A stretch of 64,000 bases of DNA. It comes from Cantharellus purpuraceus. Its lineage: Eukaryota; Basidiomycota; Agaricomycetes; Cantharellales; Hydnaceae. Each line of letters starts with the position of its first letter. Position 1 is the first letter of the stretch. A program made the position numbers and the translations under genes. This document shows, piece by piece, positions 18,589-42,930 of this stretch. The stretch is taken from NCBI GenBank assembly GCA_025174535.1, contig JALBUN010000001.1, positions 3,100,001 through 3,164,000 of the forward strand, in the 5' to 3' direction. Below the pieces are notes generated by a model that saw nothing but the letters and a program-made list of their open reading frames with translations, did no database searches and was not told the DNA's origin.

Positions 18589-18593
18589 CACCC

Positions 18594-19656
18594 CCTTGAC
18601 GCGACGCGTCTTTATCGAATTCCCATCGACGATCGATGTCGTTCCATTGTTTCGCGTGGGAGGGCCTTGGTCAATATATCCGCGGTCATGTCTCTTGTCG
18701 GTACGTATTGCACTTTCAATTCTCCATTTATAACTCTGTCCCGCAGCCAGAAATATCGCAAATCCAGATGCTTCATACATCCATGGTGCTCGGGGTTGCA
18801 GGCCACCGACAATGCTGATTGATTATCTATATTCAGGTTTGTTGGTTTATCCTTGCTGAGACCTACTTCGCCAAATAATTGTTGCATCCAGATTGTCTCT
18901 GTTCCCGCCGTTGCCGCAGCTATGTATTCGGCTTCCGTAGTCGATAACGCTACGACTGTTTGGAGCTTGCTCCCCCAGCATATTGCACCTCCACCAAGTT
19001 TTAATACGTGTCCGGAAGTCGATTGCCTGCAGTCTGGATCGCCTCCATGGTCTGCATCGGCCCATACTTCTAAGTCTTGGTTTGGGGTGTCTGGTGAATA
19101 GGTGAGTTTGAGATTGATCGTTCCTTTCAAGTAACGGAGCAAGTGTTTTACAGCTTGCCAGTGCGCTTGCCCTGGATTTGAACTGTACCTCACTAGGCGA
19201 CCGACAGCATATGCTATGTCTGGGCGTGTTGCGATTGCAACGTAGTTTAGAGCTCCAACTGCATTGAGATAAGGTATCCGTTCCGTCCTTGCTTTTTCTT
19301 CCTGATAGGTAGGCCCCATGGCGGTACTGAGCCGTAGTCCTGGGAGCATCGGTGTGGTCACTGGCCGGCAGTCAGACATATCAAAACAATTCAGTATTTC
19401 CTCAATTGTTGTTGCGAAAGTCTCAATGTCCTGTTTGCCCTATCGTATTCGACATCCACTCTGAGAAGCCCTGTGATTGGACCTAGATCTTTGAGCTTGA
19501 ACATATCAGCGATACTCTGTTTGATGCGATTGATTTTGTGCTTGGAATTTGAGATCAGTGTCAGATCTTCAACAAAAACAATAGTATGATAATCTTGATG
19601 GTTTTGTTCATCCATATGTATATGCTGGAATCAGATTGCAGTTGTTTGAATCCCAG
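18594..19656 (-). pseudogene. Ty1/copia retrotransposon fragment: end of RT plus RNase H
   Basis: Only the 3' third of a copia polyprotein remains on the minus strand. Codons near 19650-19391 give the end of reverse transcriptase ('DLGPITGLLRVDVEYDR', 'LRLSQQQ'). The catalytic YVDD-type motif reads 'FVEDL', so one aspartate is replaced. A frameshift near 19385 separates this from the RNase H part at 19379-18612. That part has the copia signatures 'ALNYVAIATRPDIAYAVG', 'LKGTINLKLTYS', 'STTEAEYIAAATAG', 'IDNQSALSVACNPEHHG' and 'HLDLRYFWLRD', and 'DMTADILTKAL' at the end. The RT reading stops abruptly at 19656, exactly where repeat X begins, so the rest of the element was lost or displaced. Confidence 0.9.
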
Positions 19657-19657
19657 G

Positions 19658-21256
19658 TGTTTTGGAACCCGCAAAATTATGGTGTTAGGGCAAACTCTAA
19701 ATCACCACAATTCCATGAATGAACAGCTGAGAAGAATATCAAACCCTGCTGCAGCACAACTCCAGAAACGATTTAACGTTTGTACTTTGGTTACAATCCT
19801 TTGTATTGGTCAATGCAGACTATACGCAGAAAGGTAATATGTTTCTTAGCAGCAAGAAATGAATAAGACTTCCAGAGTCTAGAGTTCACGGACGCTTAGG
19901 GGTCCAGATATTCCGAAAAGAGGGGAATGCACTTAGAGGCTAAAGGAATGAATCCAACCGTCCAACCAGTGGCACTCAGAAGCGACAGCGATGTGTGAAG
20001 TAGTCTAGCAACTGCTTCACACGAGTTCAAGATTCTAATGCTCTGCAAAGGCAGTACACACTAGTAACTTAAACAAGAGCACTAATGGCAGGACTATCGA
20101 CAGACAATCTCACCCTGTAGATTCGTAGTCACGTGAGGCAGATACTACACTCACGCCCAAAGCAGGAATATCACTACTTCAAGTGCAATCAAGTACAGTT
20201 ATACAACTGTAAAAGATCCTTGAACTGGTAATCAACAGTTACTGAGATAGAGGATGACACTGTATGTCACTCTAGTCACACTGGTGTGCAGAAGATGGGT
20301 AGAATATGATGGATATGTTCCTATTTCAGAGGCAGAATGGCCTCCTTATATATTGTATTTACAGGGGCTGACTAATGCTTCTGGAATATTCTACCTATTA
20401 ATAGATGGAAGCTACTGGAAGGTTGTGGAAGGTGGAAGAAAGGGGTAGAATATTCCAAGCCAATCACAGGTTCTGATCACTGGACTAACACTGATCAGGA
20501 GCTGAATAATGGTTCTGGAAAGTTCTATCTAATAATAGAAGGAAACAGCTAGAATGTTATGGAAAGGGGTAGAATATTCCAAGGCAATCACCTGATTTGA
20601 TCACCCATCAGCTGATTTGATCACCCATCAGCTGATTTGATCACCCATCAGCTGATTTGATCACCCATCAGCTGATTTGATCACCCATCAGCTGATTTGA
20701 TCACCCATCAGCTGATTTGATCACCCATCAGCTGATTTGATCACCCATCAGCTGATTTGATCACCCATCAGCTGATTTGATCACCCATCAGCTGATTTGA
20801 TCCCTGAACTAGGCACTGATCAGGCAAAAGAAGGGTGTCCACCCTGTTTTCTGCACTGGTTTGGACAGCCATGGATAGCCACATCTCATGTGATGATCTC
20901 CATGGAAAATAGTGCCCTGAGAGGCTGTGGTTGTCAAGTTAGAGAATATTTATTGATCAGAGACATCTGAGCTTGAATTCAGGCTGAATGCCTGGTCCAA
21001 AGGTGGATAGCCAGCTGTGGGAAGGTTTGTGGGCGCCTATGGGTCCACAACTGTAGCACAGCAGAAATAAATGATTCTGGGCTGAGTTCTGCATGGATTA
21101 TTCCTGGAAAAATATGGAAAAATAGAGAATATTTGAATAAGTCCATTCCAGGTACAAGCATCAAATATATGCTGATATTTAGGAATGGAAAAGCAAAGAA
21201 TAGCACATTGGTGCTGCATAAATGGAATTTGATAGGGAAAAGGAGGTTCCCATACA
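19658..21256 (-). repeat. Repeat X, left copy (LTR-like)
   Basis: Mirror of 39470-41149. Read on the minus strand it starts TGTATGGGAACC and ends GGTTCCAAAACA, a TG...CA pair with imperfect 12-bp inverted ends. It is 1,599 bp against 1,680 bp on the right because its internal 20-bp minisatellite has four fewer units. Its end at 19658 is a sharp junction with copia sequence. Confidence 0.7.
20591..20802. repeat. 20-bp minisatellite, 10 units (left copy)
   Basis: Ten head-to-tail copies of gctgatttgatcacccatca plus a 12-bp partial unit. The first unit differs by one base at its start (cctgattt). The right-arm array has 14 units. All visible units are otherwise identical, so the array is young or homogenised. 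Confidence 0.97.
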
Positions 21257-22491
21257 GGACCCCCAAGGTCACCATTATCTCGATTACATGGACGGAGTCA
21301 ACCCGTCCAACAACTGTCCCTACGGTGGACTCACTGTTACGCCTGTGGTCATGGCCATTATTTGTGGTAGGTGTGGCTGAGGAAGATGATGTGGTGGAGG
21401 CGGAGAGGGCAGAGGCGGAGGTGGATCCCAATGCCAATATGGAGCTTGACGCAAATGCAGAGCCCGAGGCAGGTGTGGATGTCAGGATGGATACGGAGCT
21501 GGATCACACCTCGAATTGCTATGAGGAGATGGCTTGGGTAGCTGCGGTCAAAGCTCACAAAAGGGCGGAGCTCTATGCTGCTACCACCAAGAAGAACCTC
21601 GAGGTCGTGGTTTTTTCATTGAAGGCACACCTGAGTGCTGATATGGAGAAGCGGGAGGCGGACTGGAGGGTCATATGGTGCAAAGTGGAGAATCGCATGT
21701 TGGCGACTCGTGAGAAGGAGCTGTGTGTTGCTAGGTCAGCGATCCAGCTTTGCAAGTGCGAGATGGAGGAGGCGGCAGCGGAACAGCAGGACAAGGAGGA
21801 GGAGAGGGACCACTTGGAGGCCACGTCAAGAAGGAGCAGACCACCCAAGGCTCTGGCTCCAACAGAGCCATTTGGCAGGCCTGGTGTAATTTGCGACTTG
21901 TGTCGTGACACAGGCGTGGAGTGTGTGTGGCCTACCGGCCCAACTCGCCGCCTTTGGTCCTGCAATTGTTGTCGGGGTCAGAAAGGAGGGTGTAGGATCA
22001 ATGGAAAGTTCGATCCCCAGAGTCAGAGCATCAAGCCCTGACTAGTGGTACAAGGAGGGGCAGAGAAAGAATCAGAAGGTCGTCCAACCAAAAGGCGGTG
22101 GACGGAGACAGGTGCTGTGGCAGTTGGGGGTAGCGGTGTCGGATCAGAAGGAGCAATGACTGGCGCAGGTATGGGATGTGTTTCTGTGCCCAACAGTACC
22201 ATGGGCCAGCTTATCCGGCTGGTTAACCTGCAGTCGGAGCACCTCCGGCGGACGGAGGGGTTGTTAGTGGACTTGGTGAAGACAATGAAATGGAAGGAGG
22301 TTCTAGAGGGTTGGCAGACTGCTGAGTTGCGTTGGCTGCAGAAGTTCATGGCCCCCTTGGATGAGGATTCAGATATGGGGGACAAGAAAGATTGGGTGTT
22401 GGATGTAGAGAGTGATGATGAGTCAGAGATGGCATTGGAGATGGAGCCTGAAGTGGACAAGGGGAAGGGAAAAAGGAAACGCAATGTATAA
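21257..22491 (+). pseudogene. Antisense Cys-rich ORF of the gypsy element (left copy)
   Basis: Mirror of 38235-39469, transcribed opposite to gag-pol. One frame runs through an acidic, helical part and a Cys-rich block ('CDLCRDTGVECVW', 'CNCCRGQKGGC') to a TGA at 22039. It then continues in the same frame to the stop at 22489-22491. The open frame also extends upstream into repeat X, but that extension (MNKSIPG...) is LTR sequence and not part of the original protein. Confidence 0.75.
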
Positions 22492-22657
22492 CTTGAGAAA
22501 TGAAAATGAAAATGATTGTAATATTTTGGAGTGGAGAAAAATGGGGCAGAGTGAGGTTCCTTTGGAGTTTGGGATAGACTTGTAATTTCCTTTGTTACTT
22601 TGTAATGAATGATTATGCGAAATAATATAATTAGCATCAGTAATGGAACTTAAAGAT

Positions 22658-25600
22658 TCATAAGAGGACCAGGTTTGTCTGGATAAGCGGAGTGAAAATG
22701 GATTCGGATGCATGATCGAGTTCGGACGCAGAGATCCATGAGGACTCTTCATTGGTGCCTTCATATCCAGTCCATTTGACTAGGTACTGGAGCTTGCACT
22801 TGTATTGACAATCGATCTTTGAGTCCAGGATCTCAGATATCTTATATTCATTATCTCCTTCGATGATGATCAGAGGAGGTGGAGGTTGCATGTGACCAGA
22901 GATCTTGTTTGTAGTAGCAGGTTTGAGCATTGATATATGGAAGACTGGATGAACTGCTTGGAAGTGGTCTGGGAGGCAGAGGGTGAAGGACCTGCTGCCT
23001 GCATGAGCAATGACCTCATAAGGACCTAAGTATTTCTCGGAGAGTTTCTTTGATGGATGGGTGGTCTGGAAATGTTTGGCCTTAACAAATACTTTGTCTC
23101 CAATTTGCAGGTCCAGAGCCAGAATGCAGCGTCGGTCCGCAGAGACTTGGTATTGTTTCTGGGCATCGGAGATGGTTTCTCAGAGATGTTGGTGTAGTTG
23201 ATCAAGGTTGGTTACGAATTGGCGGGCTTTGGTGGAGGTGAGTTCCTTCTCGGGGTGGACGGAGATGTTCAGATGGTAGCCTTTATTAGCAAAGAATGGA
23301 GAGATGCTGGTAGTCACGTTCGGAGCGTTGTTGTAGGCAAACTCTGTGATTGGAAGTAGATCAGCCCAGTTATCTTGTTGATAGTTACAATAGACTTGGA
23401 GATATTGTTCCAGGGACTGATTCATTCGTTCCGTTTGTCTGTCTCCTTCAGGATGGTATCCAGAGGTGAAATGAAGCTTCATGTTGAGAGCCTTTCCTAA
23501 TGTGTGGAAGAAGGAGGAGATGAACTCCGAGCCCCAATTGGATGTGACATGCAATGGGACTCCATGTTTAGAAAATACATGGAGAACAAACAACTTAGCT
23601 AGTGAGGTGGAGGTGATGGTGTCATGCATTGGAATGAATAGTGACTGTTTAGTGAACCTGTTGACAATCACGAGTATGGTGTCATATCCAAGCGATGGGG
23701 GGAGTTTCTCTATGAAATCCATGGAGATGGAGTTCCATGGTTGCTCTGGGACTGGAAGTTGCTTAAGCATTCCGTAGGGTTTGTGCCTTTGTGATTTTGA
23801 GCACATACATGTGGTACAAGAGTTACAGTAGTGTTGAATGTACTCTCGCATTTTTGGCCATACGTAGTCTTGTCAGATTAACCCTTGTGTGCAATTTTGC
23901 CTGAAATGGCCAGAGATCAGGTGATCATGATAATACTGCAAAACTCAGAGTCGGAGACCATTGGTGTTGGGGATGTATATCCAGTTGTTTTGTCGGAGGT
24001 GTCCTTTGGGATCCAGTGACCATTTTGGATCGGAAGGGCTGTCAAGTGTTTAACTGCAACAGGATTGGATTGGAGTGATGAGCAGATGTCAGAACGGAGT
24101 TGGTCAATATCCATAATGGTGACAGCTCAGAGGGTGGGAGTCATGAGGGTGGATGCCCATAGGGACAATGCCAGCTGCTTGTTAGTGAACACAGGACAAA
24201 AGTTGTGTGGGTTTACAGTGGCATAGTCGCTACTCCCCTCTTTAGGGTAGACATCCCAGCATCTAGTTAATGCATCGGGCTTTGCTCCGAGTCGACCAGG
24301 ATGGAAACGGATAATGAGATTGAACTGAGACAGGTATTTGGACCATCGGACTTGTCTCTGGGTGAGTAGTTTCATTGTGGAGAAGTATTCCAAATTCTTG
24401 TGGTCTGTTATGACATCCACTGGATCGGAGGGGCCTTTGAGGTAGTGTCTCCATATCTGGAAGGCTTCATATATGACAAGGAGCTCTTTGTCATGGATGT
24501 CATAGTTCAGTTCAGGGGGTGTAAATGTACATGAGTGAAAAGTGATTGGATGGACTTGTCCATCATCTGGAGAGATGATGGACAGGATCACGGCAAGTGC
24601 ATAGTCGGAGGCATTGGTCTCTAATAGGATAGGAGCATCTGGAACCCAATGAGTCAGTATCGGAGCTGAAGTAAAGGCCTTCTTCAAGGTCTCAAAGCTC
24701 TGTCTACATTCATCAGTGAAATTCCATTGGATACCCTTCCTAGTAAGTCAGGTGAGCGGAATGGTAAAATTGGAGTAGTTGTAGATGAAGTGGCGGTAGA
24801 AGTTGGCGAACCCCAGGAAGGACTGTACGTCTTTGACTTTCCACAGTTCCAGCCATTCCTGTATAGCTTTGATTTTGTCATCAGACATTGTCAGTCCTGC
24901 AGGGGAGAGGATATAGCCTAGATACTTGACTGAGTCAGAGTGGAATTTGCATTTGTCAGCGCAGGTGAAGAGGCCATGTTTTTGGAGATGTTGGAGTACT
25001 TCTTGGACGTGTGTCCGATGTTCTTCTTTGTTATCCAAATATACCAAAATGTCATCCAAGTAAACAAGGATGGTAACATCGAGGAGGTTGGCAAAGGTAT
25101 TGTTCATGAACCACTGGAAGGCAGCCGGAGCATTGGTTAGTCCAAAGGGCATGACACACCATTTGAAAGATCCATATCAAGTGCAGAAAGTTGTTTTCCA
25201 CTCATTGCCTTCTCAGATGCAGACTAGATGGTAGGCATGTCAGAGATCTATTTTGGAATAGATCTTAGCCTTTTGCAGGCTCTCAAGTAGGTCCGCAGTG
25301 TGGGGTATTGGGTACTGGTCTTTCTTAGTGATCTTGTTGAGCCCATGGAAGTCAATGCATAGCCGGAGTGATCTGTCCTTTTTGCAGACAAATAGGACCA
25401 GAGCTCCATGGGGGGATAAGGATGGGCAGATGAAGCCCACGGCCAAGTTCTCATCTATGAATGTCCAGAGAGCCATGGGATAGTGAGTAGATAGGGCCAA
25501 GCAGAGGGGTGGAGTTGTCATCCAACTCAATCTTGAGATCGTATGGTCAGTGTCCCGCTAGGGAGTTGGCTTTAGACTTGCTGAACATGTCGGCAAACTC

Positions 25601-27196
25601 GTGATACTCCTTAGGAACCATAGATAGGTCCGGTGGGGTTGATCAGGCAGAACAGGCGGCAAGGCGCATTGGATTGGAGAGGTGAACCTGGAACATTTGT
25701 GAGCCATCCAGTTTGCTTAGTCTGGTGAAGACCATAGCGTCCACCATCGATATAGACAGAGGGGTAGACAGAGTATCTATTGGAGCAGAATCAGCAGAGG
25801 TGGAAGATAATTTCACACCTAAAGTTGCTGGTGACATCAGGAATGACACAGCCTGCACTGGAGAACGGAATGTGATATGGCCCAATGCCCAGTCAATCAA
25901 CGGATTGTAGCGGGTGAGCCAATTATGTCTGAGAACCACAGAGCAGCTGGAGTCAAGTGGAGTAACATAGAATGTAGGGTTCTGGATTTCTCCAACAGAA
26001 AAATGGATAGACAGATCTATAGCTTGTGAGATAACAGCATTAGTAGTGCCATCAAATAATTGAAGCGATATCGGAGTTATGGTGTATGTATGGGGTTTAT
26101 GTAAATTGGAAAAAGAGGAATCAAGGAAACAGTGAGTAGAACCGGAGTCAATTAGTGCTTGGATGGCGGTGTTGGGAATGGAGTCGGAGTAGATGAGGAC
26201 GGTAAGGGAGTCGGAGTGGGAAAGAGTGGATGCATTCAGGCAGACCTTGTTTGTTGTATGGGGAGTACCAATGCAGCCCTCAGCCCGTACGGAGGCTATA
26301 GGACTGCTTACTATTTTTTTTGAACCGGAAGCAGCAGCGTTACCAGTGTTTGACCTCTGGCTGGAGTTGGTAGTAATCTTCTTATTGGACCCCTTGTTGG
26401 ACTTTGGGGTCTTGTCTGATGATTTGTCCAATTTGTTGTTAGCCAAATTTTCATGGGAGACCTCGGATTGATATTCCCAATAACGGGTGTTGATGGATTG
26501 GGTGAGCTTGCAAAGGTTTACCAAAGTATCTGGTTCACCAATGCGTGATATCTTATCCTTGATGCAGGATGGGAGGCCAATGTAAAATTGGCATTGGAGT
26601 GTGGTGTTGCCCCATTGGACTTTTGGGGCTAGCTGCTGGAAACTCACAATGTATTTTGTGATCTTGTGATTCTCCTTCATCCAAAGTTGATCGAGTTCAT
26701 TCTCAGCATCAGCCTTGGGGTTGTAAGGACTGAAATTGGTCCAAAGTTTGGAGATGAAGTCAGAGTAGTCTTCTGACCATATCGGGCTGTCAGAGTTGTC
26801 CATGAGTGCTGGCTTGAAGTAGTCCAGTGCAGTGCCCTTGAGATAGGACATGGTGAAGGTGACCTTCGCCTGATCAGATGTGAACACATTGGGGCGGTCG
26901 CAGAAATTCAGCCAGCATTGCACCAAGAATGGTTGGAGCTTGTGTGGATCGGAGCCGTCGAATGGGTCAGGTTCTCAGACCTTGGTCTGAGACTTAGGAG
27001 CTTGTGGGGTATGGATGCTGCTGGTGAGCAGGGAGATGGCTTGCACCAGATTTGGGGAGGGTAGAGTATCGTCCTCTTCATTGACGGCCTCTATGTGGTC
27101 CGTCGGTGCTTCAATGACCTCAGGGATGGTGTTGATGCTGGGAGCAGGCACCTCGATGGTTCGTGCATGTTTGGAATTGGTGGTGGATCATGGCAT
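22658..27196 (-). pseudogene. Decayed Ty3/gypsy (chromovirus) gag-pol, left copy
   Basis: Reverse-complement twin of 33530-38068 with the same premature stops and frame break. Order on the minus strand: Gag-like region, protease, RT with 'YLDDILVY', RNase H, integrase, chromodomain. The open segments (for example 26926-25643, 25152-24748, 24687-24127, 23851-23180) have the same lengths and sequence as in the right arm. Confidence 0.93.
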
Positions 27197-27224
27197 TGGT
27201 AGGAGTATGGCAGTTTGAATATAC

Positions 27225-27750
27225 TGTTACGCACTAGGTCCAATTGGGGGTCAGAGATTGGGTCAGAGTTGACGGTTGGAGTCAGAGTGGGAATCGGGGT
27301 GCATTGTGGAGGTTGGAACAGACTTGGCTTCAGCTTTTGTGCTGTGCCCTCACTTATACCAGTGTCTGAGATTTCAGAGATGGAGTATGACTTAGACGGT
27401 TAGGATCAGACTTAGGAGCTAGGTGTGATTCAATATATGAACTGGGAATGAAGTCCCCAGTTGGGCAACTTAAATACATATTTGAAATCTAATAATAATT
27501 ACTCCGGTGATGGGTCTCCGAGGCTGACAGCCTTATGTGAATATGTCTGAGTCCAATGGGGACAGATGTCCAGGTTCCTATGGTGATGCTGATGCATCAA
27601 TTGGAACCGGAGGCAGATGAGTGAAGTCAGCGGTGACAATTGGACAGATAAATGGAGACGGGATGGTTTCCAAATGGAGTATAGATTTCATGTGTGGGGA
27701 TCTGAGTGGATCAGACAGGGATCTGGGTGTTAATGAATATAGTCATAACA
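27225..27750 (-). repeat. 5' LTR of the gypsy element (left copy)
   Basis: Mirror of 32973-33501: TGTTATGAC at its start and GCGTAACA at its end when read on the minus strand. It is 3 bp shorter than the right-arm LTR because of small indels near 27690-27700. Confidence 0.88.
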
Positions 27751-28864
27751 GGGGTACAACAAACCTCTGCTTTTATATTGCTTAGTATAGTTCGGACTTG
27801 GGTCCAAACTCCAAACTCCTTTCCATGTTGTACTCCATATCCATCTTATTGTTTTCTTGTTTTAGTTTTAGCATTCAATTCTCCACATACTTATATGGGC
27901 TACTTTCTGTCTATTACAGTAGTTCGTATATTGACTAAGATTTGCCCCATCAACTTCTTGGTTGCTAGCTTCTTGACAAGTACCTTCTTGACGAGTCGAA
28001 CTCCAGATCCCTGATCCAACTCCATACTCCAAACTCCAAAATATTGGACCGACAATCTGAGGGGGTGCAACACACAAGTTGAAGCCAAGTCCACTTGATC
28101 TGACTCAATAGTATTGCTCCCACTCTGTCTCCAGTTGAACTGGAACAGTAAAGTCCCACCCCTCTCTTTTACTAGCAGCCTAACTCCGGTTATTCCTTTT
28201 GAACTCCAAGTATCCCAGCACTTAACACCTCCCCTTCATCACTAGCATCCGAACTCCGGTTACTCCATTGAAACCCTAATAGCATCCCAGCATTTAACAG
28301 TATATGGGCTATTTTCTGTATGTTACAGTAGTTTGTATATCAACTAAGTTTGACCCCAACATCCTCTTGGTTGCTAGCTTCTTGACAAGTGACTTCTTGA
28401 CAAGTTGAACTCCAGATCCCTGATCTGACTCCATACCTCCAAACTCTGAAATATTGGACTGATGATCTGAGGGGATGCAACACACAAGTTGAAGCCAAGT
28501 CCACTTGATCCGACTCAATAGTTATTGCACCTCTCTGTCTCTGGTTGAACTGGAACAATAAAGTCCCCTCCCATATATCTCTAGCATCCAAACTTCAATT
28601 ACCTCCTTGAACTCATGGAAAAATAGAGAATATTTGAATAAGTCCATTCCAAGTACAAGCACCATGTATATGCTGATATTTAGAAACAGAAAAGTGAAAT
28701 AGAGCACATTGGTGCTGCATAAATAGAATTTGATAGGGAAATCCCATGCAATAACAGGGATCTGGGTGGAACCTGCAAAATTATGGTGTTAGGGCAAACT
28801 CTAAATCACCACAATTCCATGAATGAACAGCTGAGAAGAATATCAAACCCTGCTGCAGCACAAC

Positions 28865-29373
28865 TGTTATGCACTAGGTCCGATTGGGGGTCAGAGTTTG
28901 GATCAGAGGTTGGGTCGGAGTCGGAGTACGTCATGGGGGTCAGAACGGACTTGGCTTCAGCTTATGTGCTGCACCCTCACTAATACTGGTGTCTGAGATT
29001 TTGGAGACAGAGTATGACTTAGAGAGTTAGGATCGGACGTAGGAGCTAGGCGTGATTTGATATTCAAACTGGGGAATGAAGTCCCCAGTCAGGCAACTTA
29101 AATACATATTTGAAATCTAATAATAATTACTCCGGTGATGGGTCTCCGAGGCCGACGGCCTTACATGAGTATGTCCGAGTCCGATGGGGACGGATGTCCG
29201 GGTTCCTATGGTGATGCTGATGCATCAATTGGAACCGGAGGCGGATGGGCGGAATCGGCGGTGACAATCGGACAGGTAAATGGAGACCGCTACAATGGAG
29301 TATAGATTTCATATGTGTGGGGATCTGAGTGGATCGGATGGAGATCTGGGCGTTAATGAATATAGTCATAACA
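28865..29373 (-). repeat. Solo LTR of the gypsy family in repeat X (left copy)
   Basis: Mirror of the solo LTR at 31351-31858. It is flanked by the 5-bp duplication ACAAC at 28860-28864 and 29374-29378, the complement of GTTGT on the other arm. It is a diverged member of the family of the 5' LTR at 27225-27750. Confidence 0.9.
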
Positions 29374-29611
29374 ACAACTCCAGAAATGATTCAACGTTTG
29401 TACTTTGGTTACAATCCTTTGTATTGGTCAATGCAGACTATACACAGAAAAGTAATATGTTTCTTAGCAGCAAGAAATGAATAAGACTTCCAGAGTCTAG
29501 AGTTCATGGACACTTAGGGGTCCAGATATTCCAAAAGAGGGGAATGCACTTAGAGGCTAAAGGAAGTAGGTGGATGAATCCAACTGTCCAACCAGTGGCA
29601 CTCTGAAGCGG

Positions 29612-29882
29612 GTACAAGCATCAAATATATGCTGATATTTAGGAATGGAAAAGCAAAGTATAGCACATTGGTGCTGCATAAATAGGATTTGATAGGAAAA
29701 AGGTGGTTCCCATACAGTGGAGTGGATGGGGATCTGGGCATTAATGAATATGGTCATAATACTATACTAGCTTCTGCTGTATGGGAACCACCTTTTCCCT
29801 ATCAAATTCTATTTATGCAGCACCAATGTGCTCTATTTCACTTTTCCATTCCTAAATATCAGCATATATTTGATGCTTGTAC
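29612..29882. repeat. Short inverted repeat at the palindrome centre
   Basis: Two fragments of about 105 bp from the start of repeat X face each other at 29612-29716 and 29779-29882. The 62-bp loop includes an LTR-like piece (GGCATTAATGAATATGGTCATAA). The arms match with a few substitutions. The left one is joined directly to the inner end of the large left arm. Confidence 0.85.
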
Positions 29883-31109
29883 CTGGAATGGACTTATTCA
29901 AATATTCTCTATTTTTCCATATTTTTTCAGGAATATTCCATGCAGAACTCAGCCCAGAATCATTTATTTCTGCTGTGCTACAGTTGTGGACCCATAGGCA
30001 CCCACAAACCTTCACACAGTCAGCACTCCACCCTTGGACCAGGCATTTGGCCTGAATTCAAGCTCAGATGTCTCTGATCAATAAATATTCTCTAACTTGA
30101 CAACCACAGCCTCTCAGGGCACTATTTTCCATGGAGATCATCACCTGATGTGGCTATCCATGGCTGTCCAAACCAGTGCAGAAACACGGTGGATACCCTC
30201 CTTTTTGCCTGATCAGCGCCTAGTTCACGGATCAGAGCAGGTGATTGATAATCAGATCAGGTGATTGGCTTGGAATATTCTACCCCCCCCATAACATTCC
30301 AGCTGTTTCCTTCTATTATTAGATAGAATATTCCAGAACCATTAGTCAGCCCCTGTAAATACAATATATAAGGAGGTCATTCTGCCTCTGAAATAATAAC
30401 ATATTCTACCACTTCTACCCATCTTCTGCACACCAGTGTGACTAGAGTGACATACAGTGTCATCCTCTATCTCAGTAACTGTTGATTACCAGTTCAAGGA
30501 TCTTTTACAGTTGTGTAACTGTACTTGATTGCACTCAAAGTAGTGATATTCCTGCTTTGGGTGTGAGTGTAGTATCTGCCTCTGTCAGGGTTCAAATGAG
30601 TCATATTCTATTTTTAGTATTTTCTCTTGACACCCCTATCAGCACAGCCTGTCAGGGTGCGTCTCCCCTATTTCATTGCCCCTATCACTTCCCCTATCCT
30701 TCCTCCCTATTATTCCCCTATCTTGGTTCTCCTATCCGTCTCCATCATTTAGTATAAAGACTCGCCTTGGTGCAGTGTGATCCCCTCAGCTTGATCTCTG
30801 AGGATATCCACTGTACCAGGTAAGTCCCATGTATTTATCAGAAACAGCTGTATAGACTGAGGATATCCACTGTACCAGCTGGCATTATCTCTTATCGGCT
30901 CTCATCTATTGAGTATCTTGTTGTTGTGGCCTTGTCATCAGCATCGCCCTCACAGCCTCACGTGACTACGAATCTACAGGGTGAGATTGTCTGTCGATAG
31001 TCCTGCCATTAGTGCTCTTGTTTAAGTTACTAGTGTGTACTGCCTTTGCAGAGCATTAGAAGCTTGAACTCATGTGAAGCAGTTGCTAGACTACTTCACA
31101 CATTGCTGT
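29615..31109. other. Spacer between inverted-repeat arms
   Basis: This 1.5-kb unpaired centre begins inside an inverted fragment of the start of repeat X and continues into the 5' half of a direct X copy that extends into the right arm. It also contains a 372-bp solo LTR of another family. No host gene is present. Confidence 0.85.
30583..30954 (+). repeat. Solo LTR, TGTCAGGG...CCCTCACA family
   Basis: 372 bp beginning TGTCAGGG and ending CCCTCACA, flanked by the 5-bp duplication GCCTC at 30578-30582 and 30955-30959. The right-arm X copy has the empty site with a single GCCTC at 40678-40682. It contains a TATA-like AGTATAAAGAC near 30750. No internal region remains, so LTR-LTR recombination is the simplest explanation. 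Confidence 0.92.
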
Positions 31110-31350
31110 TACCCGCTTCAGAGTGCCACTGGTTGGACAGTTGGATTCATCCACCTACTTCCTTTAGCCTCTAAGTGCATTCCCCTCTTTTGGAATATCT
31201 GGACCCCTAAGTGTCCATGAACTCTAGACTCTGGAAGTCTTATTCATTTCTTGCTGCTAAGAAACATATTACTTTTCTGTGTATAGTCTGCATTGACCAA
31301 TACAAAGGATTGTAACCAAAGTACAAACGTTGAATCATTTCTGGAGTTGT

Positions 31351-31858
31351 TGTTATGACTATATTCATTAACGCCCAGATCTCCATCCGATCCACTCAGA
31401 TCCCCACACATATGAAATCTATACTCCATTGTAGCGGTCTCCATTTACCTGTCCGATTGTCACCGCCGATTCCGCCCATCCGCCTCCGGTTCCAATTGAT
31501 GCATCAGCATCACCATAGGAACCCGGACATCCGTCCCCATCGGACTCGGACATACTCATGTAAGGCCGTCGGCCTCGGAGACCCATCAACGGAGTAATTA
31601 TTATTAGATTTCAAATATGTATTTAAGTTGCCTGACTGGGGACTTCATTCCCAGTTTGAATATCAAATCACGCCTAGCTCCTACGTCCGATCCTAACTCT
31701 CTAAGTCATACTCTGTCTCCAAAATCTCAGACACCAGTATTAGTGAGGGTGCAGCACATAAGCTGAAGCCAAGTCCGTTCTGACCCCCATGACGTACTCC
31801 GACTCCGACCCAACCTCTGATCCAAACTCTGACCCCCAATCGGACCTAGTGCATAACA
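31351..31858 (+). repeat. Solo LTR of the gypsy family in repeat X
   Basis: 508 bp starting TGTTATGAC and ending GCATAACA, flanked by the 5-bp duplication GTTGT at 31346-31350 and 31859-31863. The uninterrupted X copy reads GGAGTTGTGCTGC at 41044-41056, giving the empty site. It is a diverged sister of the LTR at 32973-33501. Confidence 0.95.
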
Positions 31859-32147
31859 GTTGTGCTGCAGCAGGGTTTGATATTCTTCTCAGCTGTTCAT
31901 TCATGGAATTGTGGTGATTTAGAGTTTGCCCTAACACCATAATTTTGCAGGTTCCACCCAGATCCCTGTTATTGCATGGGATTTCCCTATCAAATTCTAT
32001 TTATGCAGCACCAATGTGCTCTATTTCACTTTTCTGTTTCTAAATATCAGCATATACATGGTGCTTGTACTTGGAATGGACTTATTCAAATATTCTCTAT
32101 TTTTCCATGAGTTCAAGGAGGTAATTGAAGTTTGGATGCTAGAGATA

Positions 32148-32830
32148 TATGGGAGGGGACTTTATTGTTCCAGTTCAACCAGAGACAGAGAGGTGCAATA
32201 ACTATTGAGTCGGATCAAGTGGACTTGGCTTCAACTTGTGTGTTGCATCCCCTCAGATCATCAGTCCAATATTTCAGAGTTTGGAGGTATGGAGTCAGAT
32301 CAGGGATCTGGAGTTCAACTTGTCAAGAAGTCACTTGTCAAGAAGCTAGCAACCAAGAGGATGTTGGGGTCAAACTTAGTTGATATACAAACTACTGTAA
32401 CATACAGAAAATAGCCCATATACTGTTAAATGCTGGGATGCTATTAGGGTTTCAATGGAGTAACCGGAGTTCGGATGCTAGTGATGAAGGGGAGGTGTTA
32501 AGTGCTGGGATACTTGGAGTTCAAAAGGAATAACCGGAGTTAGGCTGCTAGTAAAAGAGAGGGGTGGGACTTTACTGTTCCAGTTCAACTGGAGACAGAG
32601 TGGGAGCAATACTATTGAGTCAGATCAAGTGGACTTGGCTTCAACTTGTGTGTTGCGCCCCCTCAGATTGTCGGTCCAATATTTTGGAGTTTGGAGTATG
32701 GAGTTGGATCAGGGATCTGGAGTTCGACTCGTCAAGAAGGTACTTGTCAAGAAGCTAGCAACCAAGAAGTTGATGGGGCAAATCTTAGTCAATATACGAA
32801 CTACTGTAATAGACAGAAAGTAGCCCATAT
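32148..32830 (+). repeat. Pair of about 260-bp direct repeats
   Basis: The segments at about 32148-32413 and 32567-32830 align along their length from 'GGGACTTTA' to 'ATAGCCCATAT'/'GTAGCCCATAT', with scattered substitutions. They sit between a fragment of repeat X and the gypsy 5' LTR. Mirror copies lie at about 28310-28575 and 27893-28156. Function and parent element are unknown. Confidence 0.8.
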
Positions 32831-32972
32831 AAGTATGTGGAGAATTGAATGCTAAAACTAAAACAAGAAAACAATAAGATGGATATGGAGTACAACATGG
32901 AAAGGAGTTTGGAGTTTGGACCCAAGTCCGAACTATACTAAGCAATATAAAAGCAGAGGTTTGTTGTACCCC

Positions 32973-33501
32973 TGTTATGACTATATTCATTAACACCCAG
33001 ATCCCTGTCTGATCCACTCAGATCCCCGCGCACATGAAATCTATACTCCATTTGGAAACCATCCCGTCTCCATTTATCTGTCCAATTGTCACCGCTGACT
33101 TCACTCATCTGCCTCCGGTTCCAATTGATGCATCAGCATCACCATAGGAACCTGGACATCTGTCCCCATTGGACTCAGACATATTCACATAAGGCTGTCA
33201 GCCTCGGAGACCCATCACCGGAGTAATTATTATTAGATTTCAAATATGTATTTAAGTTGCCCAACTGGGGACTTCATTCCCCAGTTCATATATTGAATCA
33301 CACCTAGCTCCTAAGTCTGATCCTAACCGTCTAAGTCATACTCCATCTCTGAAATCTCAGACACTGGTATAAGTGAGGGCACAGCACAAAAGCTGAAGCC
33401 AAGTCTGTTCCAACCTCCACAATGCACCCCGATTCCCACTCTGACTCCAACCGTCAACTCTGACCCAATCTCTGACCCCCAATTGGACCTAGTGCGTAAC
33501 A
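32973..33501 (+). repeat. 5' LTR of the gypsy element
   Basis: 529 bp, TGTTATGAC...GCGTAACA. It is followed 28 bp later by the Gag start codon. The same family occurs as the solo LTR at 31351 and the interrupted LTR at 41511. The flanking base strings ACCCC on the left and CAGAC after the 41511 copy do not match, so no intact insertion duplication brackets the whole element. Confidence 0.9.
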
Positions 33502-33529
33502 GTATATTCAAACTGCCATACTCCTACCA

Positions 33530-36500
33530 ATGCCATGATCCACCACCAATTCCAAACATGCACGAACCATCGAGGTGCCTGCTCCCAGCATCAACACCAT
33601 CCCTGAGGTCATTGAAGCACCGACGGACCACATAGAGGCCGTCAATGAAGAGGACGATACTCTACCCTCCCCAAATCTGGTGCAAGCCATCTCCCTGCTC
33701 ACCAGCAGCATCCATACCCCACAAGCTCCTAAGTCTCAGACCAAGGTCTGAGAACCTGACCCATTCGACGGCTCCGATCCACACAAGCTCCAACCATTCT
33801 TGGTGCAATGCTGGCTGAATTTCTGCGACCGCCCCAATGTGTTCACATCTGATCAGGCGAAGGTCACCTTCACCATGTCCTATCTCAAGGGCACTGCACT
33901 GGACTACTTCAAGCCAGCACTCATGGACAACTCTGACAGCCCGATATGGTCAGAAGACTACTCTGACTTCATCTCCAAACTTTGGACCAATTTCAGTCCT
34001 TACAACCCCAAGGCTGATGCTGAGAATGAACTCGATCAACTTTGGATGAAGGAGAATCACAAGATCACAAAATACATTGTGAGTTTCCAGCAGCTAGCCC
34101 CAAAAGTCCAATGGGGCAACACCACACTCCAATGCCAATTTTACATTGGCCTCCCATCCTGCATCAAGGATAAGATATCACGCATTGGTGAACCAGATAC
34201 TTTGGTAAACCTTTGCAAGCTCACCCAATCCATCAACACCCGTTATTGGGAATATCAATCCGAGGTCTCCCATGAAAATTTGGCTAACAACAAATTGGAC
34301 AAATCATCAGACAAGACCCCAAAGTCCAACAAGGGGTCCAATAAGAAGATTACTACCAACTCCAGCCAGAGGTCAAACACTGGTAACGCTGCTGCTTCCG
34401 GTTCAAAAAAAATAGTAAGCAGTCCTATAGCCTCCGTACGGGCTGAGGGCTGCATTGGTACTCCCCATACAACAAACAAGGTCTGCCTGAATGCATCCAC
34501 TCTTTCCCACTCCGACTCCCTTACCGTCCTCATCTACTCCGACTCCATTCCCAACACCGCCATCCAAGCACTAATTGACTCCGGTTCTACTCACTGTTTC
34601 CTTGATTCCTCTTTTTCCAATTTACATAAACCCCATACATACACCATAACTCCGATATCGCTTCAATTATTTGATGGCACTACTAATGCTGTTATCTCAC
34701 AAGCTATAGATCTGTCTATCCATTTTTCTGTTGGAGAAATCCAGAACCCTACATTCTATGTTACTCCACTTGACTCCAGCTGCTCTGTGGTTCTCAGACA
34801 TAATTGGCTCACCCGCTACAATCCGTTGATTGACTGGGCATTGGGCCATATCACATTCCGTTCTCCAGTGCAGGCTGTGTCATTCCTGATGTCACCAGCA
34901 ACTTTAGGTGTGAAATTATCTTCCACCTCTGCTGATTCTGCTCCAATAGATACTCTGTCTACCCCTCTGTCTATATCGATGGTGGACGCTATGGTCTTCA
35001 CCAGACTAAGCAAACTGGATGGCTCACAAATGTTCCAGGTTCACCTCTCCAATCCAATGCGCCTTGCCGCCTGTTCTGCCTGATCAACCCCACCGGACCT
35101 ATCTATGGTTCCTAAGGAGTATCACGAGTTTGCCGACATGTTCAGCAAGTCTAAAGCCAACTCCCTAGCGGGACACTGACCATACGATCTCAAGATTGAG
35201 TTGGATGACAACTCCACCCCTCTGCTTGGCCCTATCTACTCACTATCCCATGGCTCTCTGGACATTCATAGATGAGAACTTGGCCGTGGGCTTCATCTGC
35301 CCATCCTTATCCCCCCATGGAGCTCTGGTCCTATTTGTCTGCAAAAAGGACAGATCACTCCGGCTATGCATTGACTTCCATGGGCTCAACAAGATCACTA
35401 AGAAAGACCAGTACCCAATACCCCACACTGCGGACCTACTTGAGAGCCTGCAAAAGGCTAAGATCTATTCCAAAATAGATCTCTGACATGCCTACCATCT
35501 AGTCTGCATCTGAGAAGGCAATGAGTGGAAAACAACTTTCTGCACTTGATATGGATCTTTCAAATGGTGTGTCATGCCCTTTGGACTAACCAATGCTCCG
35601 GCTGCCTTCCAGTGGTTCATGAACAATACCTTTGCCAACCTCCTCGATGTTACCATCCTTGTTTACTTGGATGACATTTTGGTATATTTGGATAACAAAG
35701 AAGAACATCGGACACACGTCCAAGAAGTACTCCAACATCTCCAAAAACATGGCCTCTTCACCTGCGCTGACAAATGCAAATTCCACTCTGACTCAGTCAA
35801 GTATCTAGGCTATATCCTCTCCCCTGCAGGACTGACAATGTCTGATGACAAAATCAAAGCTATACAGGAATGGCTGGAACTGTGGAAAGTCAAAGACGTA
35901 CAGTCCTTCCTGGGGTTCGCCAACTTCTACCGCCACTTCATCTACAACTACTCCAATTTTACCATTCCGCTCACCTGACTTACTAGGAAGGGTATCCAAT
36001 GGAATTTCACTGATGAATGTAGACAGAGCTTTGAGACCTTGAAGAAGGCCTTTACTTCCGCTCCGATACTGACTCATTGGGTTCCAGATGCTCCTATCCT
36101 ATTAGAGACCAATGCCTCCGACTATGCACTTGCCGTGATCCTGTCCATCATCTCTCCAGATGATGGACAAGTCCATCCAATCACTTTTCACTCATGTACA
36201 TTTACACCCCCTGAACTGAACTATGACATCCATGACAAAGAGCTCCTTGTCATATATGAAGCCTTCCAGATATGGAGACACTACCTCAAAGGCCCCTCCG
36301 ATCCAGTGGATGTCATAACAGACCACAAGAATTTGGAATACTTCTCCACAATGAAACTACTCACCCAGAGACAAGTCCGATGGTCCAAATACCTGTCTCA
36401 GTTCAATCTCATTATCCGTTTCCATCCTGGTCGACTCGGAGCAAAGCCCGATGCATTAACTAGATGCTGGGATGTCTACCCTAAAGAGGGGAGTAGCGAC

Positions 36501-38068
36501 TATGCCACTGTAAACCCACACAACTTTTGTCCTGTGTTCACTAACAAGCAGCTGGCATTGTCCCTATGGGCATCCACCCTCATGACTCCCACCCTCTGAG
36601 CTGTCACCATTATGGATATTGACCAACTCCGCTCTGACATCTGCTCATCACTCCAATCCAATCCTGTTGCAGTTAAACACTTGACAGCCCTTCCGATCCA
36701 AAATGGTCACTGGATCCCAAAGGACACCTCCGACAAAACAACTGGATATACATCCCCAACACCAATGGTCTCCGACTCTGAGTTTTGCAGTATTATCATG
36801 ATCACCTGATCTCTGGCCATTTCAGGCAAAATTGCACACAAGGGTTAATCTGACAAGACTACGTATGGCCAAAAATGCGAGAGTACATTCAACACTACTG
36901 TAACTCTTGTACCACATGTATGTGCTCAAAATCACAAAGGCACAAACCCTACGGAATGCTTAAGCAACTTCCAGTCCCAGAGCAACCATGGAACTCCATC
37001 TCCATGGATTTCATAGAGAAACTCCCCCCATCGCTTGGATATGACACCATACTCGTGATTGTCAACAGGTTCACTAAACAGTCACTATTCATTCCAATGC
37101 ATGACACCATCACCTCCACCTCACTAGCTAAGTTGTTTGTTCTCCATGTATTTTCTAAACATGGAGTCCCATTGCATGTCACATCCAATTGGGGCTCGGA
37201 GTTCATCTCCTCCTTCTTCCACACATTAGGAAAGGCTCTCAACATGAAGCTTCATTTCACCTCTGGATACCATCCTGAAGGAGACAGACAAACGGAACGA
37301 ATGAATCAGTCCCTGGAACAATATCTCCAAGTCTATTGTAACTATCAACAAGATAACTGGGCTGATCTACTTCCAATCACAGAGTTTGCCTACAACAACG
37401 CTCCGAACGTGACTACCAGCATCTCTCCATTCTTTGCTAATAAAGGCTACCATCTGAACATCTCCGTCCACCCCGAGAAGGAACTCACCTCCACCAAAGC
37501 CCGCCAATTCGTAACCAACCTTGATCAACTACACCAACATCTCTGAGAAACCATCTCCGATGCCCAGAAACAATACCAAGTCTCTGCGGACCGACGCTGC
37601 ATTCTGGCTCTGGACCTGCAAATTGGAGACAAAGTATTTGTTAAGGCCAAACATTTCCAGACCACCCATCCATCAAAGAAACTCTCCGAGAAATACTTAG
37701 GTCCTTATGAGGTCATTGCTCATGCAGGCAGCAGGTCCTTCACCCTCTGCCTCCCAGACCACTTCCAAGCAGTTCATCCAGTCTTCCATATATCAATGCT
37801 CAAACCTGCTACTACAAACAAGATCTCTGGTCACATGCAACCTCCACCTCCTCTGATCATCATCGAAGGAGATAATGAATATAAGATATCTGAGATCCTG
37901 GACTCAAAGATCGATTGTCAATACAAGTGCAAGCTCCAGTACCTAGTCAAATGGACTGGATATGAAGGCACCAATGAAGAGTCCTCATGGATCTCTGCGT
38001 CCGAACTCGATCATGCATCCGAATCCATTTTCACTCCGCTTATCCAGACAAACCTGGTCCTCTTATGA
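33530..38068 (+). pseudogene. Decayed Ty3/gypsy (chromovirus) gag-pol
   Basis: One long polyprotein reading broken by stops and one frame break near 35250. The Gag-like part covers 33530-34330. A retropepsin motif 'ALIDSGSTHCFLDS' lies near 34570. Reverse transcriptase spans about 35270-35980 with 'PFGLTNAPAAFQ' and catalytic 'YLDDILVY'. RNase H ('LETNASDYALAV', 'HDKELLVIYEAF') ends near 36470. Integrase runs about 36850-37550 with 'ISMDFIEKLP' and 'GYHPEGDRQTERMNQ'. A chromodomain ('YLVKWTGYEGTNEESSW') is at 37870-38030. The domain order RT-RNaseH-IN-chromodomain identifies a chromovirus. Stops at 33536, 33748, 35081, 35178, 35484, 35976 and 37544 are TGA where a CGA arginine is expected or plausible, and the RT also shows CGC-to-TGC changes. 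No active protein can be made. Confidence 0.95.
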
Positions 38069-38234
38069 ATCTTTAAGTTCCATTACTGATGCTAATTATA
38101 TTATTTCGCATAATCATTCATTACAAAGTAACAAAGGAAATTACAAGTCTATCCCAAACTCCAAAGGAACCTCACTCTGCCCCATTTTTCTCCACTCCAA
38201 AATATTACAATCATTTTCATTTTCATTTCTCAAG

Positions 38235-39469
38235 TTATACATTGCGTTTCCTTTTTCCCTTCCCCTTGTCCACTTCAGGCTCCATCTCCAATGCCATCTC
38301 TGACTCATCATCACTCTCTACATCCAACACCCAATCTTTCTTGTCCCCCATATCTGAATCCTCATCCAAGGGGGCCATGAACTTCTGCAGCCAACGCAAC
38401 TCAGCAGTCTGCCAACCCTCTAGAACCTCCTTCCATTTCATTGTCTTCACCAAGTCCACTAACAACCCCTCCGTCCGCCGGAGGTGCTCCGACTGCAGGT
38501 TAACCAGCCGGATAAGCTGGCCCATGGTACTGTTGGGCACAGAAACACATCCCATACCTGCGCCAGTCATTGCTCCTTCTGATCCGACACCGCTACCCCC
38601 AACTGCCACAGCACCTGTCTCCGTCCACCGCCTTTTGGTTGGACGACCTTCTGATTCTTTCTCTGCCCCTCCTTGTACCACTAGTCAGGGCTTGATGCTC
38701 TGACTCTGGGGATCGAACTTTCCATTGATCCTACACCCTCCTTTCTGACCCCGACAACAATTGCAGGACCAAAGGCGGCGAGTTGGGCCGGTAGGCCACA
38801 CACACTCCACGCCTGTGTCACGACACAAGTCGCAAATTACACCAGGCCTGCCAAATGGCTCTGTTGGAGCCAGAGCCTTGGGTGGTCTGCTCCTTCTTGA
38901 CGTGGCCTCCAAGTGGTCCCTCTCCTCCTCCTTGTCCTGCTGTTCCGCTGCCGCCTCCTCCATCTCGCACTTGCAAAGCTGGATCGCTGACCTAGCAACA
39001 CACAGCTCCTTCTCACGAGTCGCCAACATGCGATTCTCCACTTTGCACCATATGACCCTCCAGTCCGCCTCCCGCTTCTCCATATCAGCACTCAGGTGTG
39101 CCTTCAATGAAAAAACCACGACCTCGAGGTTCTTCTTGGTGGTAGCAGCATAGAGCTCCGCCCTTTTGTGAGCTTTGACCGCAGCTACCCAAGCCATCTC
39201 CTCATAGCAATTCGAGGTGTGATCCAGCTCCGTATCCATCCTGACATCCACACCTGCCTCGGGCTCTGCATTTGCGTCAAGCTCCATATTGGCATTGGGA
39301 TCCACCTCCGCCTCTGCCCTCTCCGCCTCCACCACATCATCTTCCTCAGCCACACCTACCACAAATAATGGCCATGACCACAGGCGTAACAGTGAGTCCA
39401 CCGTAGGGACAGTTGTTGGACGGGTTGACTCCGTCCATGTAATCGAGATAATGGTGACCTTGGGGGTCC
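38235..39469 (-). pseudogene. Antisense Cys-rich ORF downstream of gypsy pol
   Basis: Convergent with pol and separated from its stop by about 170 bp. Reading from 39469 down there is an acidic part ('EEDDVVEAERAEAEVD'), a likely helical part rich in Glu, Lys, Arg and Ala, and a Cys block with 'CDLCRDTGVECVW' and 'CNCCRGQKGGC'. A single TGA interrupts the frame near 38687. The same frame then continues with a Gly-rich linker, a helical segment ('HLRRTEGLLVDLVKTMKWKE') and a highly acidic to basic tail ending 'KGKGKRKRNV'. The spacing of cysteines suggests a small metal-binding module, perhaps nucleic-acid binding. An N-terminal coiled-coil remnant at 41151-41348, beyond repeat X, probably belongs to the same gene. 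I do not recognise a characterised family. Confidence 0.7.
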
Positions 39470-41149
39470 TGTATGGGAACCTCCTTTTCCCTATCAAATT
39501 CCATTTATGCAGCACCAATGTGCTATTCTTTGCTTTTCCATTCCTAAATATCAGCATATATTTGATGCTTGTACCTGGAATGGACTTATTCAAATATTCT
39601 CTATTTTTCCATATTTTTCCAGGAATAATCCATGCAGAACTCAGCCCAGAATCATTTATTTCTGCTGTGCTACAGTTGTGGACCCATAGGCGCCCACAAA
39701 CCTTCCCACAGCTGGCTATCCACCTTTGGACCAGGCATTCAGCCTGAATTCAAGCTCAGATGTCTCTGATCAATAAATATTCTCTAACTTGACAACCACA
39801 GCCTCTCAGGGCACTATTTTCCATGGAGATCATCACATGAGATGTGGCTATCCATGGCTGTCCAAACCAGTGCAGAAAACAGGGTGGACACCCTTCTTTT
39901 TGCCTGATCAGTGCCTAGTTCAGGGATCAAATCAGCTGATGGGTGATCAAATCAGCTGATGGGTGATCAAATCAGCTGATGGGTGATCAAATCAGCTGAT
40001 GGGTGATCAAATCAGCTGATGGGTGATCAAATCAGCTGATGGGTGATCAAATCAGCTGATGGGTGATCAAATCAGCTGATGGGTGATCAAATCAGCTGAT
40101 GGGTGATCAAATCAGCTGATGGGTGATCAAATCAGCTGATGGGTGATCAAATCAGCTGATGGGTGATCAAATCAGCTGATGGGTGATCAAATCAGCTGAT
40201 GGGTGATCAAATCAGGTGATTGCCTTGGAATATTCTACCCCTTTCCATAACATTCTAGCTGTTTCCTTCTATTATTAGATAGAACTTTCCAGAACCATTA
40301 TTCAGCTCCTGATCAGTGTTAGTCCAGTGATCAGAACCTGTGATTGGCTTGGAATATTCTACCCCTTTCTTCCACCTTCCACAACCTTCCAGTAGCTTCC
40401 ATCTATTAATAGGTAGAATATTCCAGAAGCATTAGTCAGCCCCTGTAAATACAATATATAAGGAGGCCATTCTGCCTCTGAAATAGGAACATATCCATCA
40501 TATTCTACCCATCTTCTGCACACCAGTGTGACTAGAGTGACATACAGTGTCATCCTCTATCTCAGTAACTGTTGATTACCAGTTCAAGGATCTTTTACAG
40601 TTGTATAACTGTACTTGATTGCACTTGAAGTAGTGATATTCCTGCTTTGGGCGTGAGTGTAGTATCTGCCTCACGTGACTACGAATCTACAGGGTGAGAT
40701 TGTCTGTCGATAGTCCTGCCATTAGTGCTCTTGTTTAAGTTACTAGTGTGTACTGCCTTTGCAGAGCATTAGAATCTTGAACTCGTGTGAAGCAGTTGCT
40801 AGACTACTTCACACATCGCTGTCGCTTCTGAGTGCCACTGGTTGGACGGTTGGATTCATTCCTTTAGCCTCTAAGTGCATTCCCCTCTTTTCGGAATATC
40901 TGGACCCCTAAGCGTCCGTGAACTCTAGACTCTGGAAGTCTTATTCATTTCTTGCTGCTAAGAAACATATTACCTTTCTGCGTATAGTCTGCATTGACCA
41001 ATACAAAGGATTGTAACCAAAGTACAAACGTTAAATCGTTTCTGGAGTTGTGCTGCAGCAGGGTTTGATATTCTTCTCAGCTGTTCATTCATGGAATTGT
41101 GGTGATTTAGAGTTTGCCCTAACACCATAATTTTGCGGGTTCCAAAACA
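39470..41149 (+). repeat. Repeat X, right copy (LTR-like)
   Basis: 1,680 bp from TGTATGGGAACC to GGTTCCAAAACA, so TG...CA with imperfect inverted ends. It contains a 20-bp minisatellite (14 units) and short TATATAAGG and AGTGACATAC stretches in its middle. It carries the uninterrupted sites for two LTR insertions found in the central copy. It splits the antisense ORF from its N-terminal part. The outer end is where the palindrome stops (41150). No flanking duplication is visible (GGTCC versus CTGCC), so simple integration is not proven. Confidence 0.7.
39924..40216. repeat. 20-bp minisatellite, 14 units (right copy)
   Basis: Fourteen copies of the reverse-complement unit of the left array (tgatgggtgatcaaatcagc) with a variant last unit (caggtgat). 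This is four units longer than the left-arm array and accounts for 80 of the 81 bp of length difference in the outer part of the arms. Confidence 0.97.
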
Positions 41150-41150
41150 C

Positions 41151-42905: not shown

Positions 42906-42930
42906 CCCCATTTGGACCTAGTGCGTAACA

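What the first reader, a model, noticed from the sequence alone, without database searches (positions are those of the whole stretch)
19657..41150. A 21.5-kb palindrome: two near-identical 10-kb inverted arms made of nested retroelements
Coordinates pair as x + y = 60807 at the outer edge and about 60724 near the centre, so nearly 10 kb on each side match in inverted orientation with only a few small indels. The centre is a unique 1.5-kb spacer. Two independent insertions would not share nested insertions, decay mutations and breakpoints. An inverted segmental duplication is therefore the best reading. Transcription through it would give a 10-kb hairpin, a natural source of small RNAs against this gypsy family. 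An assembly artefact must also be considered, although different flanks and differing minisatellite lengths argue against a simple fold-back.
Basis: partly seen in the sequence, partly recalled or inferred. Interest (0 to 1): 0.85.

Follow-up and report, generated by a model that had tools for sequence, protein, structure and literature searches.

The report
Inverted copy of nested retroelements
In what is probably a mushroom genome, about 10,000 bases of dead, nested retroelements sit beside a nearly identical mirror-image copy, most likely made by repair of a DNA break between two opposite copies of a common repeat; it is a clean example of a known kind of rearrangement.

Summary
In detail: 19657-29620 and 31104-41150 match in inverted orientation with 5 substitutions inside the arms, a 4-unit minisatellite difference and four 1-2 base indels. 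For 1.6 kb of pol the arms match each other at 100% as printed; the next of 40 scored candidates is 91%. So DNA-level copying, not two independent insertions.

Corrections: (1) the spacer is not unique; it is mostly the start of an LTR (LTR1) plus a second, inverted LTR1 fragment. (2) Both outer edges lie at the end of LTR1, a family with 1,406 end matches in this 40-Mb genome. (3) The copy has a direction: the right arm continues across its edge into the rest of the same chromovirus, the left arm stops at the LTR1 end against a copia fragment. The inner junction shows 4-bp microhomology.

Best reading: a break in a left LTR1 was repaired by copying 10 kb from the inverted right side, then closed by microhomology. 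Some other local inverted LTR1 pairs are also unusually alike, others are not. The siRNA idea is untested and the arms' LTRs point outward. No reads could be checked.

The parts
18484..19657 (-). copia (Ty1/copia) fragment, left flank; ORF 18612-19439
   Evidence: 91.5% DNA match to a copia copy on C49 (L058); protein relatives include two rows named Ty1/copia reverse transcriptase, and most of the 120 listed carry PF07727. Pfam itself gave no hit for this ORF.
19658..29620 (-). left arm (read as the copy)
   Evidence: stops at the LTR1 end and abuts copia
19658..21256 (-). LTR1 copy at the outer end of the left arm; holds minisatellite 20587-20802
29611..29717 (-). LTR1 start fragment, joined to the left arm through 4-bp microhomology GGTA
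   Evidence: 94.3% to the right inner LTR1 start and 95.3% to the outer one; junction
29718..29777 (.). 60-bp stretch between the two LTR1 starts, in part a piece of an inverted LTR2 start
29778..31956 (+). inner right LTR1, interrupted by a repeat of about 373 bp and by a solo LTR2; its last bases differ from the family
31351..31859 (+). solo LTR2 inside the inner LTR1, target duplication GTTGT (31346-31350 and 31860-31864); mirrored in the left arm at about 28865-29373
   Evidence: sequence
31104..41149 (+). right arm (read as the donor)
32973..33503 (+). LTR2 at the 5' side of the chromovirus; mirrored at about 27223-27750
33504..39469 (+). broken Ty3/gypsy chromovirus interior: gag, protease, RT, RNase H, integrase pieces, chromodomain
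   Evidence: Pfam on separate pieces; reading frame interrupted
39470..41149 (+). LTR1 inserted in the 3' part of the chromovirus; holds minisatellite 39925-40220; its end is the outer edge of the right arm
41150..41511 (+). last part of the chromovirus interior, outside the palindrome
   Evidence: 39 further genome places; lies next to homologues of 38070-39469 elsewhere
41512..42930 (+). LTR2 at the 3' side of the chromovirus, split by another insertion (about 41628-42392)
   Evidence: end coordinate read by eye

Best explanation
A recent inverted, templated duplication. Before the event an LTR1 in minus orientation (its end in a copia element, its start at 29717) lay head to head with the right LTR1 at 29778, 60 bp apart. 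A break in the left LTR1 was repaired by homologous invasion of the oppositely oriented LTR1 at 39470-41149. Synthesis (break-induced replication or gap repair) ran backwards through the chromovirus and its nested LTRs to about 31104, and the new end was joined to the remaining LTR1 start fragment through a 4-bp microhomology. The copied elements were already broken. Shown: arm identity, outer edges at the LTR1 end, continuity on the right only, microhomology. Inferred: the break, the pathway, and that 29611-29717 belongs to the receiving LTR1. No function of the palindrome is needed or shown.
For: Arms nearly identical while the next relatives of pol are 88-91%. Outer edges coincide with the LTR1 end: of 32 rows that match only this end of the query, 23 (one is the right arm itself) begin within 6 bases of it. 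Homologues of 38070-39469 and 41150-41511 lie about 170-330 bp apart in 5 loci (L026, L039, L041, L042, L044), so the right side is the uninterrupted chromovirus with an LTR1 inside. Inner junction with GGTA; the LTR1 start fragment is only 94.3% like its right counterpart, unlike the arms. Each arm has private changes. Similar cases in the same genome: L045 with 2,763-bp arms at 99.8% that pass the LTR start, L046, L067 and L073.
Against: The supposed left LTR1 has no matching target duplication (start flank TCCAC, end flank CCTGG), so it must itself be a recombinant; 20 of 31 complete LTR1 copies read also lack one. No difference from the right copy remains in its first 938 bases, so the copied tract must reach almost to the LTR end. 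Five of nine tail-out pairs taken by position are only 91-93% alike, so homogenisation of inverted pairs is not general. Assembly was not tested with reads.
Confidence: 0.6

Rival explanations
1. Fold-back inverted duplication: a broken end folded back at the short inverted repeat 29611-29717 / 29778-29883 (60-bp loop), copied the right side, and later lost about 1.2 kb next to the centre.
For: The short inverted LTR1 starts with a 60-bp loop are at the centre. Fold-back priming at short inverted repeats is an established route (PMC10622511, passages).
Against: Needs a second event to remove 29884-31103 from the copy, and leaves the outer edge at the LTR1 end as a coincidence unless LTR1 homology also closed the far side.
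Confidence: 0.15
2. Assembly artefact: a wrong join inside the abundant LTR1 created the left arm.
For: Both outer edges sit at a repeat with about 1,400 end matches; four of the differences between the arms are 1-2 base indels, partly in base runs.
Against: Flanks differ, the centre is asymmetric with a microhomology join, arrays differ by exactly four units, and both arms carry substitutions not seen in other copies. Sequencing error in one arm is not excluded.
Confidence: 0.13
3. Two separate elements in opposite orientation, later homogenised along 10 kb by gene conversion.
For: Outer edges at the LTR1 end are what the limit of homology would give; some other local inverted LTR1 pairs are 99.5-99.8% alike.
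Against: The left side would have to be the same nested chromovirus with LTR1 at the same place, and the chromovirus does not continue on the left beyond the LTR1 end. Nearly complete conversion over 10 kb is required.
Confidence: 0.1
4. One inserted unit: a transposon with giant inverted repeats, or an integrated palindromic cDNA.
For: Both outer edges are the same LTR end.
Against: No target duplication around the unit (left CCAGG, right CTGCC), nor around L045 or L046; the flanks are two different elements; 11 of 31 complete single LTR1 copies have 5-bp duplications of their own.
Confidence: 0.02

Closest known systems
Yeast fragile site FS2, two Ty1 elements in inverted orientation about 280 bp apart (PMC3778018; passages read)
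   Same: Inverted retroelements with a short gap; the paper reports breaks, crossovers and break-induced replication there, and activity of inverted LTR-only pairs at the allelic place.
   Different: FS2 is a pair of elements studied by its instability; here the finished product is seen, with a 10-kb copied tract and no experiment.
Inverted (fold-back) duplications after double-strand breaks in yeast (PMC10622511; passages read)
   Same: Long inverted copies made by repair synthesis at inverted repeats, with LTR (delta) elements used in secondary recombination.
   Different: There the centre is the inverted repeat itself and the rest of the arm is lost or fused; here the centre is asymmetric and the outer side is closed at an LTR.
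Large palindromes of sex chromosomes (human Y, PMC6790999; willow, PMC7023750; search listing and start of abstract only)
   Same: Long, near-identical inverted arms with a spacer.
   Different: Those carry genes and are described as maintained by gene conversion; here only dead retroelements and no evidence of maintenance.

Membership tests
Inverted duplication / large palindrome | Two long, near-identical inverted arms | tested here: met
Inverted duplication / large palindrome | Arms come from DNA copying, not from independent insertions | tested here: met
   next relative of pol 91%; nested insertions shared
Inverted duplication / large palindrome | Confirmed by reads spanning the junctions | not testable with these tools
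   no reads held
FS2-like inverted LTR fragile site | Inverted LTR elements a short distance apart | tested here: met
   LTR1 starts at 29717 (-) and 29778 (+), 60 bp apart
FS2-like inverted LTR fragile site | Elevated breakage under replication stress | not testable with these tools
   needs an experiment
Ty3/gypsy chromovirus (the copied material) | gag, protease, RT, RNase H, integrase and chromodomain between LTRs | tested here: met
   Pfam on separate pieces: gag, protease, RT, RNase H, chromodomain above cut-off; integrase (rve, H2C2) below the cut-off; LTR2 on both sides
Transposon with terminal inverted repeats | Target-site duplication around the whole unit | tested here: not met
   left CCAGG, right CTGCC
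siRNA-producing hairpin locus | Small RNAs from both strands of the arms | not testable with these tools
   no RNA data; RNAi domains exist in the genome

The most novel reading that the evidence does not exclude
Inverted pairs of this very abundant LTR act across the genome as places where breaks are repaired by long inverted copying, so that LTR density itself keeps seeding palindromes; the 10-kb palindrome would be the longest case seen here and L045 a second.
Probability: 0.25. Interest if true: 0.5.

Novelty: new member of a known kind. Interest (0 to 1): 0.32.

Why it matters
It is a well-preserved product of LTR-mediated inverted copying in which donor, recipient and both junctions can be read, in a genome with hundreds of copies of the same LTR. 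That makes it possible to ask from sequence alone how often inverted LTR pairs turn into long palindromes and how long these last. It also warns that a long inverted retroelement match is not by itself evidence of a small-RNA locus.

Tried and rejected
Independent insertions: rejected on divergence and shared nested insertions. One inserted palindromic unit: rejected for lack of a target duplication. An early idea that the outer 97 bp belong to LTR2 was wrong; they are the end of LTR1. An early note gave 83% for the LTR1 start fragment; that alignment included the loop, and one search gives 94.3%. A 4-bp match CTGC on the two sides of 29778-41149 was noted as a possible target duplication but not accepted: LTR1 shows 5 bp and the outer right LTR1 lies inside the chromovirus. 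LTR1 insertion hotspot in LTR2: not supported; of 89 distinct 60-bp flanks 39 had a best hit, 15 to LTR1 itself, 14 to the chromovirus interior, 6 to LTR2, 3 to the chromovirus end, 1 to copia. The minus-strand ORF piece 38685-39467 gave no relative at E <= 0.001 and its full ORF no Pfam hit. Five literature searches listed, among the 10-15 rows shown each, nothing that describes this palindrome; two papers (PMC10766186, PMC6103520) were seen as outline and abstract only.

Full report
What was checked. Self-comparison of the window gives one long inverted match, 19657-29620 with 31104-41150. The alignment has five substitutions inside the arms (left positions 24094, 24667, 27695, 28066, 29135), two more mismatches at the inner junction, an 80-base difference that is exactly four 20-bp units of a minisatellite, and four indels of 1-2 bases. 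The observation and its coordinates are confirmed.

Where it is. The window is C1:3100001-3164000 of a 40.15-Mb, 50-contig genome. The nearest named relatives of the neighbouring Pescadillo gene are from Ramaria (62%), Hysterangium (62%), Sphaerobolus (58%) and Clathrus (54%), so the host is probably a gomphoid-phalloid mushroom (inference; five unnamed proteins from ENA and other sources are closer, 70-78%).

What the arms are made of. The right arm holds a broken Ty3/gypsy chromovirus. Pfam on separate pieces finds gag, protease, RT, RNase H and a chromodomain above cut-off and integrase below it. It begins with an LTR here called LTR2 (32973-33503). A second family, LTR1 (begins TGTATGGGAACC, ends GGTTCCAAAACA, commonly about 1.43 kb), lies inside its 3' part at 39470-41149 and again at 29778-31956. 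LTR1 behaves as an LTR: 11 of 31 complete copies read have identical 5-bp flanks, 20 do not. It has 1,406 end and 793 start matches with up to 3 mismatches. The inner LTR1 carries a solo LTR2 with target duplication GTTGT.

Which side is the original. In five loci (L026, L039, L041, L042, L044) homologues of 38070-39469 and 41150-41511 lie about 170-330 bp apart, in L042 with only 84 bp of the first piece. On the right, then, LTR1 sits in a chromovirus that continues on both sides of it. On the left the same LTR1 ends directly in a copia element. The next 70 bases of the C49 copia copy have no match elsewhere in the window; the rest of copia was not searched for by DNA. The right arm is therefore read as donor and the left as copy.

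The edges. Both outer edges are at the LTR1 end. The inner junction joins the arm (..GCGGGTA) to an LTR1 start fragment (..CAGGTACAAGC) through GGTA. That fragment is 94.3% identical to the right inner LTR1 start and 95.3% to the outer one, unlike the arms.

Not two insertions. With 1.6 kb of pol as probe, the two arms match at 100% as printed and the next of 40 scored candidates is 91%, the rest 88-91%. Five sites were compared with other copies. The left base at right-arm position 36059 is in 0 of 8; the left 2-bp loss near 33029 is in none of the 14 forms printed (23 copies; the list was cut at 14); the right base at 31589 is in 0 of 26. At 36632 the right base is in 3 of 4 and the left in 1; at 32657, a CpG site, 7 of 10 have the left base. 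So each arm has at least one change not seen in other copies; sequencing error cannot be excluded.

Is it part of a pattern? I fetched 20 places picked by eye, 18 with LTR1 matches, mostly those with several matches nearby, plus C9:605500-613500 and the C49 copia copy. I then fetched all nine tail-out pairs within 4 kb among the 100 exact end matches that one search listed out of 1,406. Of these nine, two have near-identical arms (L067 99.5% over 1435 bp, L073 99.5% over 1368 bp), two match at 98.5-100% over only 205-301 bp, and five are 91-93% alike over about 820 bp. In the hand-picked set L045 has 2,763-bp arms at 99.8% and L046 1,281-bp arms at 99.8%. In one search, among 33 recorded complete copies (two places counted twice by a bookkeeping slip of mine, which gave two false 100% pairs), the highest remaining identities are three local inverted pairs, 99.58-99.84%; the best between loci is 98.57% and the median of 497 pairs is 94.6%. 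The window's own pair is split by its array and is not in that top list. Among listed neighbouring ends within 4 kb 15 of 20 are inverted, against 48 of 88 within 200 kb; loss of direct pairs by deletion may explain this. Exchange between inverted LTR1 copies thus looks real but far from universal; among the places examined only L045 and the window show a long copied tract that passes the LTR start.

Mechanism. The simplest account is repair of a break in a left LTR1 with the inverted right LTR1 as donor, long synthesis, and microhomology closure. Yeast offers the model: FS2, inverted Ty1 elements about 280 bp apart, is a hotspot of breaks repaired by crossovers and break-induced replication, and inverted LTR-only pairs at the allelic place act likewise (PMC3778018, passages). 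Microhomology at template switches is described in PMC8473981 (passages). The main weaknesses: the assumed left LTR1 has no matching target duplication, and no difference from the donor is left in its first 938 bases.

Function. None is needed. CpG observed/expected is 0.40 in both arms and 0.17 in the spacer, against 0.92-0.93 in two flanking gene stretches and 0.83 in a third; the copia flank is 0.90. That suggests methylated, decaying elements and a younger copia (inference). The genome has Piwi, RdRP and Dicer-dimer domains, so small RNAs are possible, but nothing here shows them.

Noticed in passing
L045 (C23:3338000-3344900), 534-6219: A second palindrome: 2,763-bp arms at 99.8% with a 160-bp spacer, outer edges at the LTR1 end; the right LTR1 has target duplication GACAG, the left copy has none and lies in a chromovirus stretch. 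Two of its six differences lie within 18 bases of the LTR end.
   Followed up: partly
L046 (C9:753000-757200), 667-3526: Two inverted LTR1 copies at 99.8%; GCTAC flanks the start of the left and the end of the right copy, as if the piece between had been inverted by recombination.
   Followed up: partly
L047 (C3) and L057 (C46): The same LTR1 insertion appears on two contigs (98.4% alike); on C46 the LTR end is followed by an extra copy of the end with the flank of the opposite LTR, which looks like a template switch.
   Followed up: no
window 38685-39749, minus strand: A 354-aa open frame antisense to the 3' part of the chromovirus and running into LTR1, with a cysteine-rich stretch; no Pfam hit, and its 38685-39467 part has no relative at E <= 0.001.
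   Followed up: partly
window 53546-54321: A polyubiquitin-like gene whose repeat units are only about 77% alike at the DNA level (period 278); naming is by eye from the translation.
   Followed up: no
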